A stretch of DNA of 64,000 nt from positions 1-64,000 of the forward strand of contig CACJJL010000010.1 of the NCBI GenBank assembly GCA_902593735.1, read 5' to 3'. Of this stretch, positions 4,183 through 64,000 are shown one piece after another; the stretch's first letter is position 1; each line of letters opens with the position of its first letter. Below the pieces are notes generated by a model. That model saw only the letters and a list, made by a program, of their open reading frames with translations, was not told where the DNA came from and searched no databases. Both the position numbers and the translations under genes were made by a program. Origin of the DNA: an uncultured SAR116 cluster alpha proteobacterium. Its GTDB lineage: Bacteria > Pseudomonadota > Alphaproteobacteria > Puniceispirillales > Marisalimonadaceae.

Positions 4183-4727
4183 ACTATATTAAAATTTGCA
4201 AGTATATTTTAAAAAGTAAATTAATCTTGTATATGTTGATTATTTTAATAACAAATTTTATATTACCCTCAGAAAATGCTTTTTCGTACTCAAAAGAGCC
4301 TAAAGTTTCAATTAATGGTAGCGGTTTAAAAATACCTAGAATTGTCTCCTTAAAAAATTCTCTAACTTACATGAGATCAGGCCCAGGTAGGGAGTTTCCA
4401 ATTAAATTTGAATTAAAACAAAAAGGACATCCCTTAAAAATAATTGCTGAGTATAATAATTGGAGAAAAGTAACGACATTATATAATGTTACTGGTTGGA
4501 TACATACACAATTGCTGTCTTCCTTTAGGACTGGAGTAATTATGAAAACCACTTTTTTAAAGAAAACACCTTCTAATTCAGGAAATACTGTAGCTAAACT
4601 TTTGCCTAATTTATTAATTAACATAAAGAAATGTAGAGAAAATTGGTGTAAAGTAGAGATATTAAAGGAGAAAGTGTTTATAGGCTGGGTAAACAAAGAA
4701 TATATTTGGGGTTCAACAAAAAATTAA
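4179..4727 (+). CDS. Exported bacterial SH3-domain protein
   Basis: Predicted periplasmic or envelope protein. After a short basic N terminus there is a hydrophobic signal segment (LILYMLIILITNFIL). Two SH3b-like repeats follow: the first holds YMRSGPGREFPIKFEL and WRKVTTLYNVTGWIH, and the second ends CKVEILKEKVFIGWVNKEYIWG. Such domains usually bind cell-wall peptides; the exact role is unknown. I choose the ATG at 4179 because it forms a 4-bp ATGA overlap with the previous stop; an upstream ATG at 4161 is possible. The family is common as a hypothetical protein in alphaproteobacteria. Confidence 0.8.
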   Translation: MNYIKICKYILKSKLILYMLIILITNFILPSENAFSYSKEPKVSINGSGLKIPRIVSLKNSLTYMRSGPGREFPIKFELKQKGHPLKIIAEYNNWRKVTTLYNVTGWIHTQLLSSFRTGVIMKTTFLKKTPSNSGNTVAKLLPNLLINIKKCRENWCKVEILKEKVFIGWVNKEYIWGSTKN

Positions 4728-58478: not shown

Positions 58479-58904
58479 ATGAGCAAAGTAAATGAAAATA
58501 AAGTAGAAGACTTGATAATTATTGATCACTTTATTAAAGATTTATCTTACGAAAACCCTCAAAATATAAATCTGAAACATATAAAAGATGATAAAGATCA
58601 TGACATTGTTTCTGATCTTAAAGTAACCTTTCGAAGACTTGATAAAAAAATTTTTAGTCTAATTTTAAAATATACATTAGAGTGTAAAAACAAAAGTAAA
58701 AACGAAATATTATGTCATCTAGAGTTGGATTATTTTGGACTTTTTCAGGTAACAGAAGATAAATATGATCAAAAAAACTTAACTAAACATGCACTTCATC
58801 TAATTTTCCCATTTGCAAAAGAAATAGTAGAATATTTAAGCCGAAAGGGAGGAAGTATTCCAGTTACTTTGAATCACATAGATTTTAAACTTAAAGAAAA
58901 TTAA
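58479..58904 (+). CDS. secB: Protein-export chaperone SecB
   Basis: Tetrameric chaperone that hands unfolded preproteins to SecA. Family pattern: IDHFIKDLSYENPQ, LKYTLECKNKSKNEILCHLELDYFGLFQV, LIFPFAKEIVEYLSRKGGSIPVTLNHIDF (all quoted in part). Length 141 is usual. Upstream 122 bp, shared with the divergent Tim44-like gene, is nearly all A/T with alternating TATATA; no clear promoter stands out. Overlaps dnaQ end to end by 4 bp. Confidence 0.94.
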   Translation: MSKVNENKVEDLIIIDHFIKDLSYENPQNINLKHIKDDKDHDIVSDLKVTFRRLDKKIFSLILKYTLECKNKSKNEILCHLELDYFGLFQVTEDKYDQKNLTKHALHLIFPFAKEIVEYLSRKGGSIPVTLNHIDFKLKEN

Positions 58905-59611
58905 ATTCCTAATTTTTTCCAAATGCTGTTAGGTATTTCACTTATATTTTTTTTATGTAAAACGTTATCAATTTCATTTATTTTTACAGCATTAATCTTC
59001 TTGAGTTTCAAATTTTTGTATAACACATTAATATCTACATTATCAAAGTTATATGTTTCATTTAGTATTTCGTTTTCATCTTCAAATTCTAGTTTTGATT
59101 GTTGCCCACCTATTAACTCTAAATAGACTGACGCCAATAATTTTGCGTCTTTTAATGCACCATGCAATGACCTGTGAGATAAATCAATGTTATATTTTCT
59201 ACAAAGTGAATCTAAGCTGACTGATTGCCCTAAAAATTCTTTTTTGGCTAACTCTAATGTATCTATTACAACGGATGCATCAATTTCAGGTAAATTACAT
59301 TTTCTAAGTTCTGAATTAATAAATCCTATGTCAAAAGCTGCATTATGTATTATTATCTTACTATCTGCAATGAATTCAATTAAATCATCTGCAATTTCAC
59401 AAAACTTAGGCATAACACTTAAAAATTCTCTAGTTAGACCATGTACAGCCTCAGCCTTAATATCTGACTCTCTTTCTGGATTTAGATAAGTATGAAAATT
59501 ATCACCTGTTGGCACATGATTTTGAAGTTCAATTATTCCTATTTCTACTATCCTATGTCCATCATTGTAATCCAGTCCCGTTGTTTCAGTATCTAATACT
59601 AGTTCTCTCAA
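58901..59611 (-). CDS. dnaQ: DNA polymerase III epsilon subunit (3'-5' proofreading exonuclease)
   Basis: DEDDh exonuclease that proofreads DNA Pol III. ExoI LVLDTETTGLDYNDGHRIVEIG with the DxE pair, ExoII IIHNAAFDIGFINSEL, ExoIII SLHGALKDAKLLASVYLEL with His and Asp. The C-terminal polymerase-binding tail follows (to 236 aa). It overlaps coaE by 4 bp (ATGA). Its neighbour order secB/dnaQ-coaE is the one found beside the origin in Caulobacter. Confidence 0.96.
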   Translation of the reverse strand: MRELVLDTETTGLDYNDGHRIVEIGIIELQNHVPTGDNFHTYLNPERESDIKAEAVHGLTREFLSVMPKFCEIADDLIEFIADSKIIIHNAAFDIGFINSELRKCNLPEIDASVVIDTLELAKKEFLGQSVSLDSLCRKYNIDLSHRSLHGALKDAKLLASVYLELIGGQQSKLEFEDENEILNETYNFDNVDINVLYKNLKLKKINAVKINEIDNVLHKKNISEIPNSIWKKLGI

Positions 59612-60222
59612 TGTGGTTTCACCTTTTCACTAAGAATAATCCCTAACAAGCTGTACAAAGTAAAAATAAAGCTGAATAGTTTTCCATAAGATGTGTCAAT
59701 AATAATTGGTCTTTTCATTTTTTTCTTTTCATAACTCCACTGAGCTTTGTTGATAAGATCGAATTTTTCTTCTGTCATATTTGGCCTTAACATAACTCTT
59801 TTCTTTTGTATGCTTTTTTTAGCATTTACCAAGAATACATAATTACAAATTGCATCATTTCCTGTTTCATATAATAATGGAACATCTAATGCAATGATAT
59901 AACTATTTAAATGATCCTTGATAAAGTTATCTCTTTTTTCTCCCACAATTGGGTGTATTAGTTTTTCTAATATTTCTCTATTTTTTTTATCCTTAAATAT
60001 TATATTCGCAAGTATAACTTTATTTATTTTCTTTTGTGATTTTATGAAACATTTTGTTTCTGGCCAAATTTCTATAATTTGCTTTATAATTTGATTATTT
60101 GTATTTAGTATTTTTCTAACCTGTTGATCTGAGTCAAATACTGGAATTTTCAAGAACCTTAACATAGAACAAACTGTGGTTTTTCCCATCCCAATAGATC
60201 CAGTTACTCCAATTATGATCAT
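59608..60222 (-). CDS. coaE: Dephospho-CoA kinase
   Basis: Last step of coenzyme A synthesis. P-loop GVTGSIGMGKTTVCSMLR, then FDSDQQVRKIL, and VPLLYETGNDAICNYV. Length 204 is typical. The C-terminal part is divergent and hydrophobic (SFIFTLYSLLGIILS). Together with coaBC at the other end of the window it supplies CoA. It starts at the left edge of the candidate origin; maf and aroE, normally between it and the origin, are absent. Confidence 0.94.
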   Translation of the reverse strand: MIIIGVTGSIGMGKTTVCSMLRFLKIPVFDSDQQVRKILNTNNQIIKQIIEIWPETKCFIKSQKKINKVILANIIFKDKKNREILEKLIHPIVGEKRDNFIKDHLNSYIIALDVPLLYETGNDAICNYVFLVNAKKSIQKKRVMLRPNMTEEKFDLINKAQWSYEKKKMKRPIIIDTSYGKLFSFIFTLYSLLGIILSEKVKPH

Positions 60223-60235
60223 TTTATACCTTCAG

Positions 60236-60249
60236 CACATGTTAGTAAA
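60236..60249 (+). repeat. Left arm of a 14-bp inverted repeat in oriC
   Basis: CACATGTTAGTAAA is the exact reverse complement of 60317-60330; the arms are separated by 67 bp of AT-rich DNA. The right arm runs into the DnaA box at 60327. A possible regulator or initiator binding pair. Confidence 0.65.
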
Positions 60250-60316
60250 TTGTTAGTGTTTTATAAAATAACTAAATATATTTATTTACACTTTAATTTA
60301 TTAAACATACTAATAC

Positions 60317-60330
60317 TTTACTAACATGTG
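60317..60330 (-). repeat. Right arm of the 14-bp inverted repeat in oriC
   Basis: TTTACTAACATGTG, partner of 60236-60249. Its last four bases are the first four of the perfect reverse DnaA box TGTGGATAA (60327-60335). Confidence 0.65.
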
Positions 60331-60410
60331 GATAAAATTAAAATTAAAAATTTTAAATTGTTAATAAGTAACATTATAATTATAATTCTTAGTCATTTAG
60401 CTTAATAAAT

Positions 60411-60444
60411 TGTGAATAAAAGTTGATAATTAGTCTTATCCACA
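60411..60444. other. DnaA box cluster at the hemE side of oriC
   Basis: Three 9-mers lie within 34 bp: TGTGAATAA (60411-60419, reverse, fits TTATNCACA), AGTTGATAA (60421-60429, reverse, one mismatch from TTATCAACA) and TTATCCACA (60436-60444, forward, perfect). Spacers are 1 and 6 bp. Confidence 0.75.
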
Positions 60445-60511
60445 GAGTTGCTAATTACATCTACATATATTAATTAATACATAAATTTATATGTTTAGTT
60501 AAGGATACTTA

Positions 60512-61564
60512 ATGAATAAAAAATTAATGCTGAATACCTTCAAAATAAAATCTAACGATATTCCTGTTTGGTTTTTAAGACAGTCTGGCCGACATTTACC
60601 TGAATATTATGAAATCAGGTCTAAAAAAAGAAATTTTATAAACTTCTGTTTAGACGAAAACTTGATTTATGAAAGTACTATGTTGCCCCTTAAATATTAT
60701 GATTTAGACGCAGTAATTATTTTTTCAGATATCTTGATTGTACCATGGGCAATAGAACGAAATGTCAAATTTTTCAAAGGTATTGGTCCAAAATTAGAGC
60801 CTCTTTTACCGGGAACTAAATTAATAGAGAATTTAAATATAAAAAATAAGCTTTCTCCTTTATCCAATTCCATTACTAACATAAGAAAAAAGCTCGTTAC
60901 CTCCAAAAGTATAATAGGTTTTGCTGGTGCACCATGGACACTGGCTTGTTATATGATAGATGGTCAAAGTAGTAAAGACTTTATAGAAACTAGAAAAGCC
61001 GTTTGGGGCTCCAATAAATGGTTTAGAAAACTTCTAAATTGCTTAACAATTTACGTAACTGATATATTAGAACTGCAAGCAAAAGCTGGTGCTGATATAT
61101 TAATGATATTCGATAGTTGGTCGCATATGATACCAAACAATTTTTTCCAAGTTTGTGCTATTGATCCAACTGCTAACATAATTAAAGATCTTAAGTTTAG
61201 AGGGGTAAAGTGCCCCATTATTGGTCTTCCATTCAAGGCTGGTTCTTCTTTAATTAAATATTCTTATGAAAGTACAGTGGATTGTATTTCTTTGGATTGG
61301 ACCATTGATCTAAGTTGGGCAGACAAAAATCTTAATAAAGATTTAACTATACAGGGCAATCTTGATCCAGCATCATTAATTCCAAATAAAAGTGATTTGT
61401 TAAAAGATAATGTCTTATCAATTTTAAATAAAATGAATGATAGAAGATTTATTTTTAATGTTGGACATGGTTTAACCCCTGATTGCAAAATTAGTAACGT
61501 AAAAAGTGTTATTGAAATTGTGAAAAATTATAGAATGAAAGAAAGTAATTGTATTACGATTTAG
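60512..61564 (+). CDS. hemE: Uroporphyrinogen decarboxylase
   Basis: Decarboxylates the four acetate groups of uroporphyrinogen III in heme synthesis. Conserved N terminus IPVWFLRQSGRHLPEYYE (usual PVWFMRQAGRYLPEY), AVIIFSDILIVPWAIE with the key Asp, GFAGAPWTLACYMIDG, QAKAGADILMIFDSW and NVGHGLTPD. Length 350. AAGGA at 60501-60505 is a good ribosome binding site 6 bp before the ATG. First rightward gene from the candidate origin; overlaps hemJ by 16 bp. Confidence 0.96.
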   Translation: MNKKLMLNTFKIKSNDIPVWFLRQSGRHLPEYYEIRSKKRNFINFCLDENLIYESTMLPLKYYDLDAVIIFSDILIVPWAIERNVKFFKGIGPKLEPLLPGTKLIENLNIKNKLSPLSNSITNIRKKLVTSKSIIGFAGAPWTLACYMIDGQSSKDFIETRKAVWGSNKWFRKLLNCLTIYVTDILELQAKAGADILMIFDSWSHMIPNNFFQVCAIDPTANIIKDLKFRGVKCPIIGLPFKAGSSLIKYSYESTVDCISLDWTIDLSWADKNLNKDLTIQGNLDPASLIPNKSDLLKDNVLSILNKMNDRRFIFNVGHGLTPDCKISNVKSVIEIVKNYRMKESNCITI

Positions 61565-61989
61565 TTAAATCATTACATCTAATAGCTGTAATTTCCTGGA
61601 TGGTTGGTTTGTTGTACTTACCAAGACTTTTTGTGTATCATAATGATACTAAGCATATGAGTGAAATTGATGAAACTTTTTTATTAATGGAATATAGGCT
61701 TTTAAAATTTATTATGCTTCCTGCAGCTTTATCTACATATGTGTTTGGTTTTATAATGCTTTATGAAAATTTATATTTACTTCATGAAATTTATTTCATT
61801 GTTAAATCTTTACTAGTTATTATAATGACAATTATTCACTTTTATTTATCTGTTCTTTACAAAAATTTCAAAAAAGGGTATAGAAAAAAAAGAACTATTT
61901 TTTATAGAATTATAAATGAAGTTCCAACTTTATTAATGATATCAATTATTTTACTAATAATTGTAAAACCAGATCTCCTAATCTTTTAA
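61549..61989 (+). CDS. hemJ: Protoporphyrinogen IX oxidase HemJ
   Basis: Membrane enzyme converting protoporphyrinogen IX to protoporphyrin IX. Four hydrophobic helices; conserved His10 in VKSLHLIAVISWMVGLLYLPRLFVYH (quoted for position) and a Lys in IYFIVKSLLV (about 87) match the essential HemJ residues. Length 146 is usual. Starts at TTG 61549 inside the hemE end. hemE-hemJ gives two heme steps in one operon, followed 24 bp later by rho, a standard alphaproteobacterial arrangement. Confidence 0.94.
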   Translation: MYYDLVKSLHLIAVISWMVGLLYLPRLFVYHNDTKHMSEIDETFLLMEYRLLKFIMLPAALSTYVFGFIMLYENLYLLHEIYFIVKSLLVIIMTIIHFYLSVLYKNFKKGYRKKRTIFYRIINEVPTLLMISIILLIIVKPDLLIF

Positions 61990-62013: not shown

Positions 62014-63273
62014 ATGCACTTAAAAGAACTTAAAGCGAAGAATCCTTCAGATTTACTATCATATGCAGAGAGTCTTGACATTGAAAATGTTAGCACACTC
62101 AGGAAACAAGATATGATGTTTGCTTGTTTGAAAAAGCTGGCAGATAACGATATTGCTATTTATGGAGATGGAGTCTTAGAGGTTTTATCAGATGGCTTTG
62201 GTTTTTTAAGATCACCAGAATCTAACTATCTTGCTGGTCCGGATGACATTTATATTTCTCCAAATCAAGTGAGAAAATTTGGTTTGCGTACAGGCGATAC
62301 AGTTGAGGGACAAATTAGAGCACCAAAAGATGGAGAAAGGTATTTTGCACTTCTAAAAGTTGAAAATATTAATTTTGAAACACCAGATTCTGTTAGACAT
62401 AGAATAAATTTTGATAATTTAACTCCTCTTTATCCACAAGCGAAAATAAATTTTGAAACAGACTTTGATCCAAATAACAAAGATATTACTACTCGGGTTG
62501 TTGAAATGGTTGCCCCAATGGGAAAAGGTCAACGAGGTTTAATAGTTGCGCCACCTCGAACTGGAAAAACAATGATGCTTCAATCAATAGCTCAAGCTAT
62601 ATCTAAAAACCATCCAGAAATATATTTGATTGTTTTATTAATTGATGAAAGGCCTGAGGAAGTTACAGATATGCAAAGATCTGTAAATGGGGAAGTAATA
62701 AGTTCAACTTTTGATGAACCAGCTTCTAGACATGTTCAAGTTACTGACATGGTAATAGAAAAAGCCAAGAGGCTTGTTGAACATAAGCGAGATGTTGTTA
62801 TTTTGTTGGACTCAATCACAAGATTAGCTAGAGCATATAACACAGTTATACCTTCAAGTGGCAAAGTGTTGACTGGTGGAGTAGATGCAAATGCATTACA
62901 ACGACCAAAAAGATTTTTCGGAGCTGCTAGAAATATAGAGGATGGAGGGTCATTAACTATTATTGCAACTGCCTTGGTTGAAACAGGATCAAGAATGGAT
63001 GAAGTAATATTTGAAGAATTTAAGGGAACAGGTAATAGCGAAGTAATTTTAGATAGAAAGCTCTCAGACAAGAGAACTTTTCCAGCTATAGATGTAACAA
63101 AGTCAGGAACAAGAAAAGAGGAACTTTTAGTGGAAAAGGATACTTTATCTAGAATGTGGGTATTAAGAAGAATTCTAATGCAAATGGGACCTGTGGATGC
63201 AATGGACTTTCTTTCTGACAAATTAAAGCAAAGCAAGTCTAATGAAGATTTTTTTAGGGCCATGAACAAATAA
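62014..63273 (+). CDS. rho: Transcription termination factor Rho
   Basis: Hexameric RNA helicase that ends transcription. N-terminal RNA-binding OSB fold ([25 protein letters not shown], about 51-75, quoted in part), P-loop APPRTGKT (179-186), Walker B region [17 protein letters not shown] and the Q/R-loops to the C-terminal [10 protein letters not shown]. Length 419 is normal. Active Rho fits the near-absence of intrinsic terminators in the window. Confidence 0.98.
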
Positions 63274-63275
63274 AT

Positions 63276-63291
63276 TGTTTCACGTGAAACA
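63276..63291. other. parS: parS centromere site (ParB binding)
   Basis: TGTTTCACGTGAAACA is a perfect 16-bp palindrome and an exact match to the bacterial parS consensus TGTTNCACGTGAAACA. It lies between the rho stop and mnmE, outside coding sequence, 2.8 kb from the candidate oriC. parAB themselves are usually a little further on, past mnmE-mnmG-rsmG, outside this window. Confidence 0.93.
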
Positions 63292-63308: not shown

Positions 63309-64000
63309 TTGTATACAATCTTTTCCTCCGCATCAAACGCTTATAAAAGCGCAATAAAAATTATCAGAGTTTCAGGCAGTCATGCGAAAGAATTGCCCGA
63401 AATATTTTCATTCAAAGTTACAAAACCCCGTGTTGCATCTATTAGAAAGTTATATGATTTAAAAAAGAAAATTATTGATCATGCCTTAGTGATTTTTTTT
63501 CCAGGGCCAAAAACGGTAACAGGAGAAGATCTTTTTGAGTTACACATACATGGAAGTTCAGTTATAGAAAAAAAAATCTATAATGTACTTTGTGATAATA
63601 ATAAATTCAGAATAGCAGAAAAAGGTGAATTTACTAGAAGGGCTTTTCTTAACGGAGTTATCGACCTTACGCAGGCAGAAGCTTTGAATGATTTAATAAA
63701 CTCAGAGACAGAAAATCAGTTCAAAGCATCAATCTCTCAATATGGAGGAGCTTTATCAAAAAAAACTCTTCATTGGAGAAATGAAATTATACATTCGCTT
63801 GCAAAATTGGAGACACTGATTGACTTTGCGGATGAAGAGCTTCCAAGAAATCTTCAAAAAACTTTTCATGATAATGTAGTCTTATTATTAAAAGATATGA
63901 AAAGAGCGATTAAGTTCAGTAGTTATGGTACAAGATTAAGAAGTGGTTTTGTTATAACACTAATAGGTCGCCCTAATGTTGGCAAAAGTTCTCTTGTGAA
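63309..64000 (+). CDS. mnmE: tRNA modification GTPase MnmE (3' truncated by window)
   Basis: With MnmG it makes the cmnm5 modification at U34 of tRNAs. The frame is open from a TTG at 63309 to the window end (230 codons plus 2 bases). Seen: start MYTIFSSASNAYKSAIKIIR, the folate-binding FPGPKTVTGEDLFELHIHG, EKGEFTRRAFLNGVIDLTQAEAL, and the start of the GTPase domain with P-loop IGRPNVGKSSLV at the edge. No in-frame ATG exists near the N terminus and the frame is closed at 63285-63287, so TTG is the likely start. About half of the usual ~450 residues are present. Confidence 0.93.
   Translation, partial: MYTIFSSASNAYKSAIKIIRVSGSHAKELPEIFSFKVTKPRVASIRKLYDLKKKIIDHALVIFFPGPKTVTGEDLFELHIHGSSVIEKKIYNVLCDNNKFRIAEKGEFTRRAFLNGVIDLTQAEALNDLINSETENQFKASISQYGGALSKKTLHWRNEIIHSLAKLETLIDFADEELPRNLQKTFHDNVVLLLKDMKRAIKFSSYGTRLRSGFVITLIGRPNVGKSSLV

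What the first reader, a model, noticed from the sequence alone, without database searches (positions are those of the whole stretch)
60223..60511. Likely chromosomal origin between coaE and hemE
The largest gene-free gap of the window has two perfect DnaA boxes, one consensus variant and several near matches in very AT-rich DNA. Established knowledge: the Caulobacter origin sits next to hemE, with maf-aroE-coaE-dnaQ-secB on the other side; Rickettsia and other alphaproteobacteria share the hemE link. Genes point away from it on both sides. The architecture is compact and, unlike Caulobacter, shows no GANTC site by eye.
Basis: partly seen in the sequence, partly recalled or inferred. Interest (0 to 1): 0.8.

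Follow-up and report, generated by a model that had tools for sequence, protein, structure and literature searches.

The report
SAR116 chromosome replication origin, unusual unwinding triplets
The gap between coaE and hemE is very probably where this ocean bacterium starts copying its chromosome, and beside its DnaA sites lies a repeated three-letter signal that departs from the textbook rule for how such origins are opened.

Summary
The 289-bp gap (18% GC) is the window's largest ORF-free stretch, with two perfect DnaA boxes and one single-mismatch box (0.09 expected). The genome belongs to the low-GC SAR116 cluster. In 26 of 28 genus loci (own included) both flanks are held; all 26 gaps are about 259-289 bp with the same box ladder. 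Two exact parS sites, the only ones in the held assembly, lie 2.8 and 6.0 kb beyond, with parA-parB. dnaA is elsewhere, without boxes upstream. In three single-contig order relatives, sampled GC skew changes sign at or near hemE; within the genus corrected skew is flat. So: chromosomal origin, about 0.95, of the expected hemE type, but with coaE as left boundary.

Place and strand are those of the DnaA-trio, but the fixed base is G, not the central A; the centre is T in 67 of 103. The published A-centred triplet rule fits 11 of 26, shuffles 12. DnaA has Tyr where B. subtilis Asn187 reads that A. Similar runs, often weaker, lie upstream of hemE in other Alphaproteobacteria.

The parts
58479..58904 (+). 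secB-like gene (part of the conserved origin neighbourhood)
   Evidence: NCBIfam SecB models, best E 1.7e-19, below curated cut-off
58901..59611 (-). dnaQ, DNA polymerase III epsilon
   Evidence: NF004316, over cut-off
59608..60222 (-). coaE, left boundary gene
   Evidence: TIGR00152, over cut-off
60223..60511 (.). predicted chromosomal origin of replication (oriC)
   Evidence: box cluster, conserved architecture in the 26 same-genus gaps compared, parS/parAB proximity, skew change at or near hemE in three single-contig order relatives
60240..60248 (-). weak DnaA-box slot 1 (3 mismatches here; <=2 in 18 of 26 rows)
60251..60259 (-). weak DnaA-box slot 2 (decayed here, 5 mismatches; <=2 in 20 of 26 rows)
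60327..60335 (-). DnaA box, perfect only here (<=2 mismatches in 20 of 26)
60359..60367 (-). DnaA-box slot, TTATTAACA (<=2 mismatches in 26 of 26)
60411..60419 (-). DnaA box TTATTCACA, the best conserved slot (<=2 mismatches in 26 of 26; mean 0.77)
60436..60444 (+). DnaA box, perfect; the box next to the unwinding side (<=2 mismatches in 24 of 26)
60457..60465 (+). triplet run ACA TCT ACA (lower strand 3'-TGT AGA TGT-5'), 12 nt after the box: DnaA-trio-like element
60466..60511 (.). very AT-rich stretch to hemE, inferred first-melting region
   Evidence: sequence; inference
60512..61564 (+). hemE, right boundary gene
   Evidence: TIGR01464, over cut-off
61549..61989 (+). hemJ-like
   Evidence: TIGR00701, just under cut-off
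62014..63273 (+). rho
   Evidence: TIGR00767
63276..63291 (+). parS, exact match to the (recalled) consensus
63309..64000 (+). mnmE (runs past the window); mnmG, rsmG, second parS, ParA-like, ParB-like follow on the same contig

Best explanation
This is the chromosomal origin (oriC) of a low-GC SAR116-cluster alphaproteobacterium. Inferred working: DnaA binds a ladder of mostly minus-oriented weak and strong boxes across the gap, ending in a convergent pair (minus box 60411, plus box 60436). From the plus box the DnaA filament extends rightwards onto the lower strand, capturing it in steps of three through the triplet run at 60457-60465 (G every third base), which opens the AT-rich stretch before hemE for helicase loading. 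ParB at the parS sites 2.8 and 6.0 kb away then segregates the new origins. Shown: the sequence elements, their conservation, the parS positions, the skew change in relatives. Inferred: every binding and melting step, and that G rather than the middle base is what DnaA reads in the triplets.
For: Box cluster far beyond shuffles. 26 same-genus gaps (own included; 2 of 28 loci lack coaE because the contig begins near hemE): length about 259-289 bp, ends extrapolated from protein matches; slot 60411 has <=2 mismatches in 26 of 26, slot 60359 in 26 of 26, slot 60436 in 24 of 26. parS TGTTTCACGTGAAACA exact at C10:63276 and 66533 and nowhere else in the held assembly (84% complete) at <=1 mismatch, followed by ParA-like and ParB-like genes. 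dnaA lies on another contig; in two relatives with long contigs it is about 62 kb away on the coaE side; 0 of 27 dnaA upstream stretches (17 with a full 400 bp, the other 10 with 17-204 bp) have a box with <=1 mismatch. Orientation-balanced 4-fold GC skew, 20 sampled 20-kb windows per genome: G042 negative in 9 of 9 windows starting 0.56-1.68 Mb, -0.015 in the window with hemE (1.809 Mb), positive in 10 of 10 from 1.96 Mb round to 0.42 Mb; G048 negative in 11 of 11 from 0.13 to 1.43 Mb, positive in 9 of 9 from 1.50 Mb round to 0, hemE at 1.490 Mb; G037 weaker. Triplet run: n>=3 in 25 of 26, n>=4 in 22 of 26, 9-15 nt after the box position; dinucleotide shuffles of the same 51 nt give 0.5 and 0.06 of 26.
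Against: No single-contig genome of the genus was available, and within the genus orientation-balanced 4-fold skew shows no switch at the gap (left and right: G012 -0.021 and -0.003, G009 -0.037 and -0.019; in the window the right side holds only two ORFs, on one strand), so the genus itself gives no independent positional signal. Raw cumulative skew minimum is 0.4 kb from the gap in G009:C2 but 34 kb away in the fetched 400 kb of G012:C1. The relatives' skew change is resolved only to the sampling step (about 50 kb in G048, 140-280 kb in the others), and G037 is noisy: 8 of 10 windows from 1.26 to 2.48 Mb negative, 9 of 10 others positive. Perfect box pairs also occur at the nrdJ promoter. 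The window's own triplet run is short (3 units; P 0.07 and 0.17 alone); its weight comes from the alignment, whose rows are related and so not independent. L031 has only two triplets. At the anchor, L007 and L027 have 3 and 4 mismatches to the box. Box (<=1 mismatch) plus three triplets is not unique: 3 further hits in 400 kb of G012 and 2 in 267 kb of G009, whose own origin box is too weak to be found by that rule.
Confidence: 0.95

Rival explanations
1. The gap is only a divergent promoter regulated by DnaA, and the origin is elsewhere.
For: The genome has another conserved pair of perfect boxes upstream of a gene, nrdJ (27 of 27 stretches examined), so conserved boxes need not mean an origin. 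Flat corrected skew in the genus.
Against: parS/parAB next to it; skew change at or near hemE in three single-contig order relatives; triplet run with the spacing of an unwinding element; published hemE origins of Caulobacter and Rickettsia (PMC1914354, passages).
Confidence: 0.03
2. The origin lies at dnaA, as in many bacteria.
For: Common arrangement outside Alphaproteobacteria (established knowledge). In 10 of 27 loci less than 400 bp upstream of dnaA could be read.
Against: 0 of 27 same-genus dnaA upstream stretches (17 with 400 bp) carry a box with <=1 mismatch; dnaA about 62 kb from hemE in G012 and G009.
Confidence: 0.01
3. Origin is right, but the triplets are an ordinary B. subtilis-type DnaA-trio (3'-GAT-5', central A read by DnaA), merely degenerate in some species.
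For: The commonest published trio is 3'-GAT-5' (PMC8287927, section 14 part 1); 36 of 103 genus triplets have A in the centre, and L010, L023, L028 have only GAT.
Against: Centre is T in 67 of 103; four gaps have GTT in all or all but one unit; the (NAN)x3 triplet rule fits 11 of 26 gaps against 12.1 in shuffles; T at the centre worked poorly in B. subtilis (PMC10721633, passages); DnaA has Tyr for Asn187 in 29 of 29 that cover the site.
Confidence: 0.2
4. Origin is right, but the triplet run is something else: a translated leader, or a hemE promoter/5'UTR element.
For: Period three with variable third letter could be Thr codons; L005 has an ATG shortly before the run (seen in the alignment). 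In 12 of 26 gaps an ORF does read through the run in one and the same frame.
Against: The run's phase to the hemE start is mixed (11, 10 and 5 of 26 in the three phases) and ORFs with ATG/GTG/TTG reading through it occur in 6, 7 and 12 of 26 by frame, none in all; the run sits 9-15 nt from the box position (12 of 26 at exactly 12), while its distance to hemE varies more (35-55 nt where the longest run is this one); runs of the same kind occur in other alphaproteobacterial hemE gaps.
Confidence: 0.12

Closest known systems
Caulobacter crescentus Cori / hemE-type alphaproteobacterial origin
   Same: Beside hemE, AT-rich, cluster of strong and weak DnaA boxes, parS within about 8 kb; ppsR-maf-coaE-dnaQ side present in two order relatives looked at (PMC1914354 and PMC6399470 passages; W-boxes: PMC10797057 passages).
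   Different: Left boundary is coaE, not COG1806/ppsR; no TTAA-N7-TTAA CtrA site and no GANTC in the gap; of the two Trans_reg_C proteins found in the incomplete genome neither looks like CtrA by eye (not scanned); boxes are TTATCCACA type, not the Caulobacter TGATCCACA (PMC4285127 passages).
Basal unwinding system (BUS) of Bacillus subtilis with DnaA-trios
   Same: Box, spacer of 9-15 nt (published peak 10-13, limit 16), three or more triplets on the strand complementary to the box as written, AT-rich DNA beyond.
   Different: The invariant base of each triplet is the outer G, not the central A; centre mostly T; DnaA Asn187 replaced by Tyr.
Escherichia coli oriC DUE with TTGT/TTATT motifs
   Same: The lower strand of ACA repeats reads 5'-TTGTTGTTGT-3', i.e. 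repeated TTGT; in E. coli oriC 5'-TTGT-3' and TTATT likewise lie on the strand complementary to box R1 as written, on the same side of it.
   Different: In E. coli the motifs are scattered in 13-mers, with IHF and many boxes on the other side; here they are tandem triplets directly after the box.

Membership tests
alphaproteobacterial hemE-type chromosomal origin | intergenic, next to hemE | tested here: met
alphaproteobacterial hemE-type chromosomal origin | cluster of DnaA boxes beyond chance, conserved in relatives | tested here: met
alphaproteobacterial hemE-type chromosomal origin | AT content above genome average | tested here: met
   18% GC in the gap against 29.8% in the window
alphaproteobacterial hemE-type chromosomal origin | COG1806/ppsR as other boundary (ancestral arrangement) | tested here: not met
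   coaE is the neighbour here; ppsR is the neighbour in G042 and by appearance in G037. Published origins with other boundaries exist (Wolbachia), so it is not a strict requirement
alphaproteobacterial hemE-type chromosomal origin | GC-skew minimum | tested here: inconclusive
   at or near hemE in G042, G048 and, weaker, G037; flat in the genus
alphaproteobacterial hemE-type chromosomal origin | parS/parAB nearby | tested here: met
alphaproteobacterial hemE-type chromosomal origin | CtrA sites (TTAA-N7-TTAA) | tested here: not met
   0 in the gap; one Wolbachia strain also has none (PMC1914354 passage), so it is not a strict requirement
alphaproteobacterial hemE-type chromosomal origin | IHF site | not tested
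   no model used
alphaproteobacterial hemE-type chromosomal origin | replication starts there in cells | not testable with these tools
   needs marker frequency or autonomous replication
BUS with canonical DnaA-trios | DnaA box (<=2 mismatches) beside the element | tested here: met
   24 of 26 gaps, window included
BUS with canonical DnaA-trios | spacer 0-16 nt | tested here: met
   9-15 nt to the conserved run
BUS with canonical DnaA-trios | at least three 3'-NAN-5' triplets | tested here: not met
   11 of 26 gaps, 12.1 in shuffles; in the window the rule fits only another stretch, 3 nt after the box, not the conserved run. Only the triplet part of the published program was applied, at the anchored box
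BUS with canonical DnaA-trios | strand separation by DnaA needs box and triplets | not testable with these tools
   needs an assay

The most novel reading that the evidence does not exclude
Alphaproteobacterial DnaA reads a G-anchored triplet, lower strand 3'-GNN-5' with the centre mostly T or A (G also occurs outside the genus), instead of the A-centred DnaA-trio, because the residue that reads the central A in B. subtilis (Asn187) is mostly Tyr, else Phe, His or Val (29 of 30 examined outside the genus), while the contacts to the G are kept (Arg202 to Lys, Glu228 unchanged). On this reading 5'-TAG-3' trios of Bacillus and 5'-TTGT-3' of E. coli are two spellings of one G-anchored triplet code, and this genus shows both spellings at the same place.
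Probability: 0.4. Interest if true: 0.75.

Novelty: new variant of a known kind. Interest (0 to 1): 0.5.

Why it matters
It gives an oriC coordinate for a marine, mostly uncultured lineage whose own corrected GC skew is uninformative, which growth-rate estimates from read depth need. More widely, it offers a natural series of origins in which the triplet period is kept while the central base changes, next to a DnaA whose base-reading residue is changed. That makes the open question of what DnaA recognises in single-stranded origin DNA (A-centred trio or TTGT motifs) testable with short synthetic scaffolds.

Tried and rejected
Skew inside the genus: raw cumulative skew looked supportive (window minimum at about 60 kb; G009 minimum 0.4 kb from the gap but G012 minimum 34 kb off), but after balancing gene orientation at 4-fold sites nothing is left; not used as evidence. 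A second perfect-box pair on C25 was considered as a rival origin and set aside: it lies upstream of nrdJ. Missing GANTC sites: 0 in 7,092 bp of 26 gaps against 5.4 in shuffles, but GANTC is depleted about twofold in the window (84 against 176) and in 400 kb of G012 (530 against 1101) anyway, so the absence in the gaps is at best weak. CcrM: one weak N6_N4_Mtase hit in the own genome; not pursued. Leader-peptide reading of the triplets: not supported, not excluded in every species. The published NAN triplet rule is not better than shuffles here. Test in other orders (29 loci, the best-scoring of 96 other-order genomes with HemE): longest C-centred run longer on the hemE strand in 24 of 29, shorter in 2, equal in 3; but only 9 of 29 reach P<=0.05 singly (order relatives 12 of 19, genus 23 of 26), and the run pattern excluded G beside C. 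One of 30 DnaAs examined outside the genus (G151) keeps Asn at position 187, and a GAT-containing run lies upstream of its hemE; a single case, not counted. Literature: searches were judged from their listings; none lists a paper whose title or abstract start treats DnaA-trios of alphaproteobacterial or SAR116 origins. The one paper of one search holding both words (PMC5043019) was not opened. Subscription journals and supplementary tables (for example the alphaproteobacterial rows of PMC8287927) were not seen, so this is no proof that it is unpublished.

Full report
What the window is. The nearest named relatives found with HemE are SAR116-cluster single-cell and metagenome genomes (14 of 20 loci are titled SAR116; one more is a single-cell alphaproteobacterium, one an alphaproteobacterial MAG; four are distant). 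The window is contig C10 of a 1.81-Mb, 65-contig, 84%-complete assembly. The gap lies between coaE (-) and hemE (+); the neighbourhood reads secB-like, dnaQ, coaE, gap, hemE, hemJ-like, rho, parS, mnmE, mnmG, rsmG (a second parS inside its start), ParA-like, ParB-like. In the single-contig relative G042 the order is secB-like, dnaQ, coaE, maf, ppsR (COG1806), gap, hemE, hemJ, rho (maf and ppsR by family search, the others by appearance). COG1806 is the published left boundary of the Caulobacter and Rickettsia origins (PMC1914354, passages), so in this genus the boundary has moved because ppsR and maf are no longer there; whether they survive elsewhere was not searched.

Is the box cluster real? 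Yes. In the whole assembly there are 18 perfect boxes (33 for the reversed control pattern), and only two places have two within about 120 bp: this gap and the nrdJ upstream region.

Conservation. HemE was sought in 61 genomes (own, 36 same genus, 24 same order); 50 have it. Among the 28 own-plus-genus loci, 26 hold both coaE and hemE; in two coaE is not held, the contig beginning near hemE (L022, L029). The 26 gaps are about 259-289 bp (ends extrapolated from protein matches) and were aligned. Slots: minus boxes at window 60240, 60251, 60327, 60359, 60411 and a plus box at 60436, with <=2 mismatches in 18, 20, 20, 26, 26 and 24 of 26 rows. The rows are related, so they are not 26 independent cases.

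Position in the chromosome. Twenty sampled 20-kb windows each of three single-contig relatives, balanced for gene orientation at 4-fold sites. G042: negative in 9 of 9 windows starting 0.56 to 1.68 Mb, -0.015 in the window holding hemE at 1.809 Mb, positive in 10 of 10 from 1.96 Mb round to 0.42 Mb. G048: negative in 11 of 11 from 0.13 to 1.43 Mb, positive in 9 of 9 from 1.50 Mb round to 0, hemE at 1.490 Mb. G037, weaker: 8 of 10 windows from 1.26 to 2.48 Mb negative (one 0.000, one +0.050), 9 of 10 others positive, hemE at 2.490 Mb. A further single-contig relative of the order (G043) was not sampled. In the genus, balanced skew is flat. dnaA is 62 kb away in G012 and G009 and has no box with <=1 mismatch in any of 27 upstream stretches, 17 of them a full 400 bp.

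The unwinding side. In the frame of the plus box, the published BUS is box, spacer (peak 10-13 nt; at most 16 in the program), then at least three 3'-NAN-5' triplets (PMC8287927, section 13 and section 14 part 1). At this place, searched over spacers 8-20, the 26 gaps have a run with C in the middle of upper-strand triplets: length 5 in 4, 4 in 18, 3 in 3, 2 in 1; spacer 9-15, exactly 12 in 12 of 26. Dinucleotide shuffles of the same 51 nt, searched the same way, give three or more triplets in 0.48 of 26 (maximum 3 in 500 rounds) against 25 observed. Read on the lower strand, each unit is 3'-G-centre-third-5'. The centre is T in 67 and A in 36 of 103 units; four gaps have GTT in all or all but one unit (L007, L024, L025, L027), three have only GAT (L010, L023, L028). 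The NAN triplet rule, applied at the same box with spacers 0-16, fits 11 of 26, shuffles 12.1. So the period, place and strand of the DnaA-trio are met, its central A is not.

DnaA. Aligned with PDB chain 8btg (B. subtilis by recall; its numbering fits the residues named in PMC10721633), Asn187 falls on Tyr214 of this genome's DnaA. In B. subtilis Asn187 bonds to the central A, Arg202 and Glu228 to the G, and T or G at the centre worked poorly while C worked (PMC10721633, passages). Same-genus DnaAs: Tyr in 29 of 29 that cover the site, of 30 loci; position 202 Lys, 228 Glu in 29 of 29. In 30 other alphaproteobacterial genomes (8 same order, 22 other orders): Tyr 22, Phe 4, His 2, Val 1, Asn 1; 202 Lys 30 of 30; 228 Glu 30 of 30. 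E. coli has Gln208 there. The A-contact is thus changed and the G-contacts kept or conservatively changed, which matches the letters of the triplets. This is a correlation in one class, not a test.

Beyond the genus. HemE was found in 22 of 24 order relatives; upstream DNA was taken for 20, and one (28 bp) was dropped. In the remaining 19 the longest C-centred run is longer on the hemE strand in 15, tied in 4, never shorter; 12 of 19 reach P<=0.05. In 29 genomes of other orders (the best-scoring of 96 with HemE) it is longer in 24, shorter in 2, tied in 3; 9 of 29 reach P<=0.05. Runs of four or more occur in 29 of these 48; their centre on the lower strand is T 71, G 41, A 39, C excluded by the pattern. 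Not all alphaproteobacteria need have their origin at hemE, so some of the 29 may not be origins.

Relation to E. coli. E. coli DnaA binds TTGT and TTATT in the single-stranded DUE (PMC10316083 and PMC10797057, passages). Oriented on box R1, these motifs lie on the complementary strand, on the same side as the triplets here. The ACA-repeat versions of this genus read 5'-TTGTTGTTGT-3' on that strand. Hence the bold reading in the section on the most novel reading.

Verdict. A hemE-type chromosomal origin of a SAR116 genus, confidence 0.95; ordinary as a location, new as a boundary variant as far as seen, and interesting for a G-anchored triplet element that does not obey the A-centred rule. That DnaA captures these triplets is inferred at about 0.7; that it reads the G rather than the centre, about 0.4.

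Noticed in passing
G000:C25:4308-4423 (L002), upstream of nrdJ at 4494; same-genus loci among L233-L261: Two perfect DnaA boxes, 107-120 bp apart, both perfect in 27 of 27 nrdJ upstream stretches examined (own included; three of 30 loci lacked the gene's start and were left out): better conserved than the origin's own boxes. Suggests strict DnaA control of the B12-type ribonucleotide reductase, as known for E. coli nrdAB (PMC8203912, passages), or a DnaA-titrating or reactivating site.
   Followed up: partly
window 63276-63291 and C10:66533-66548: The only two parS-like 16-mers (<=1 mismatch) in the held assembly, one between rho and mnmE, one inside rsmG.
   Followed up: yes
window and G012:C1: GANTC occurs at about half the expected number (84 against 176; 530 against 1101), and GcrA is present in 26 of 37 genomes of the genus (not found in the window's own, incomplete one), although neither Trans_reg_C protein of the own genome looks like CtrA.
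   Followed up: partly
G012:C1, G009:C2: Orientation-balanced GC skew at 4-fold sites is near zero on both sides of the origin, unlike in the higher-GC relatives sampled: replication strand asymmetry seems lost in this genus.
   Followed up: partly
dnaA loci of the genus (L068, L169-L171, L173, L174, L183, L187-L189): In 10 of 27 loci only 17-204 bp upstream of dnaA could be read, the own genome among them (contig C24 begins 95 bp before the dnaA match); assemblies seem to break often just upstream of dnaA, cause unknown.
   Followed up: no
L290 and L232 (G151): The only one of 30 other alphaproteobacterial DnaAs with Asn at the position of B. subtilis Asn187 comes from a genome whose hemE upstream has CTACTACT, i.e. 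GAT trios.
   Followed up: no
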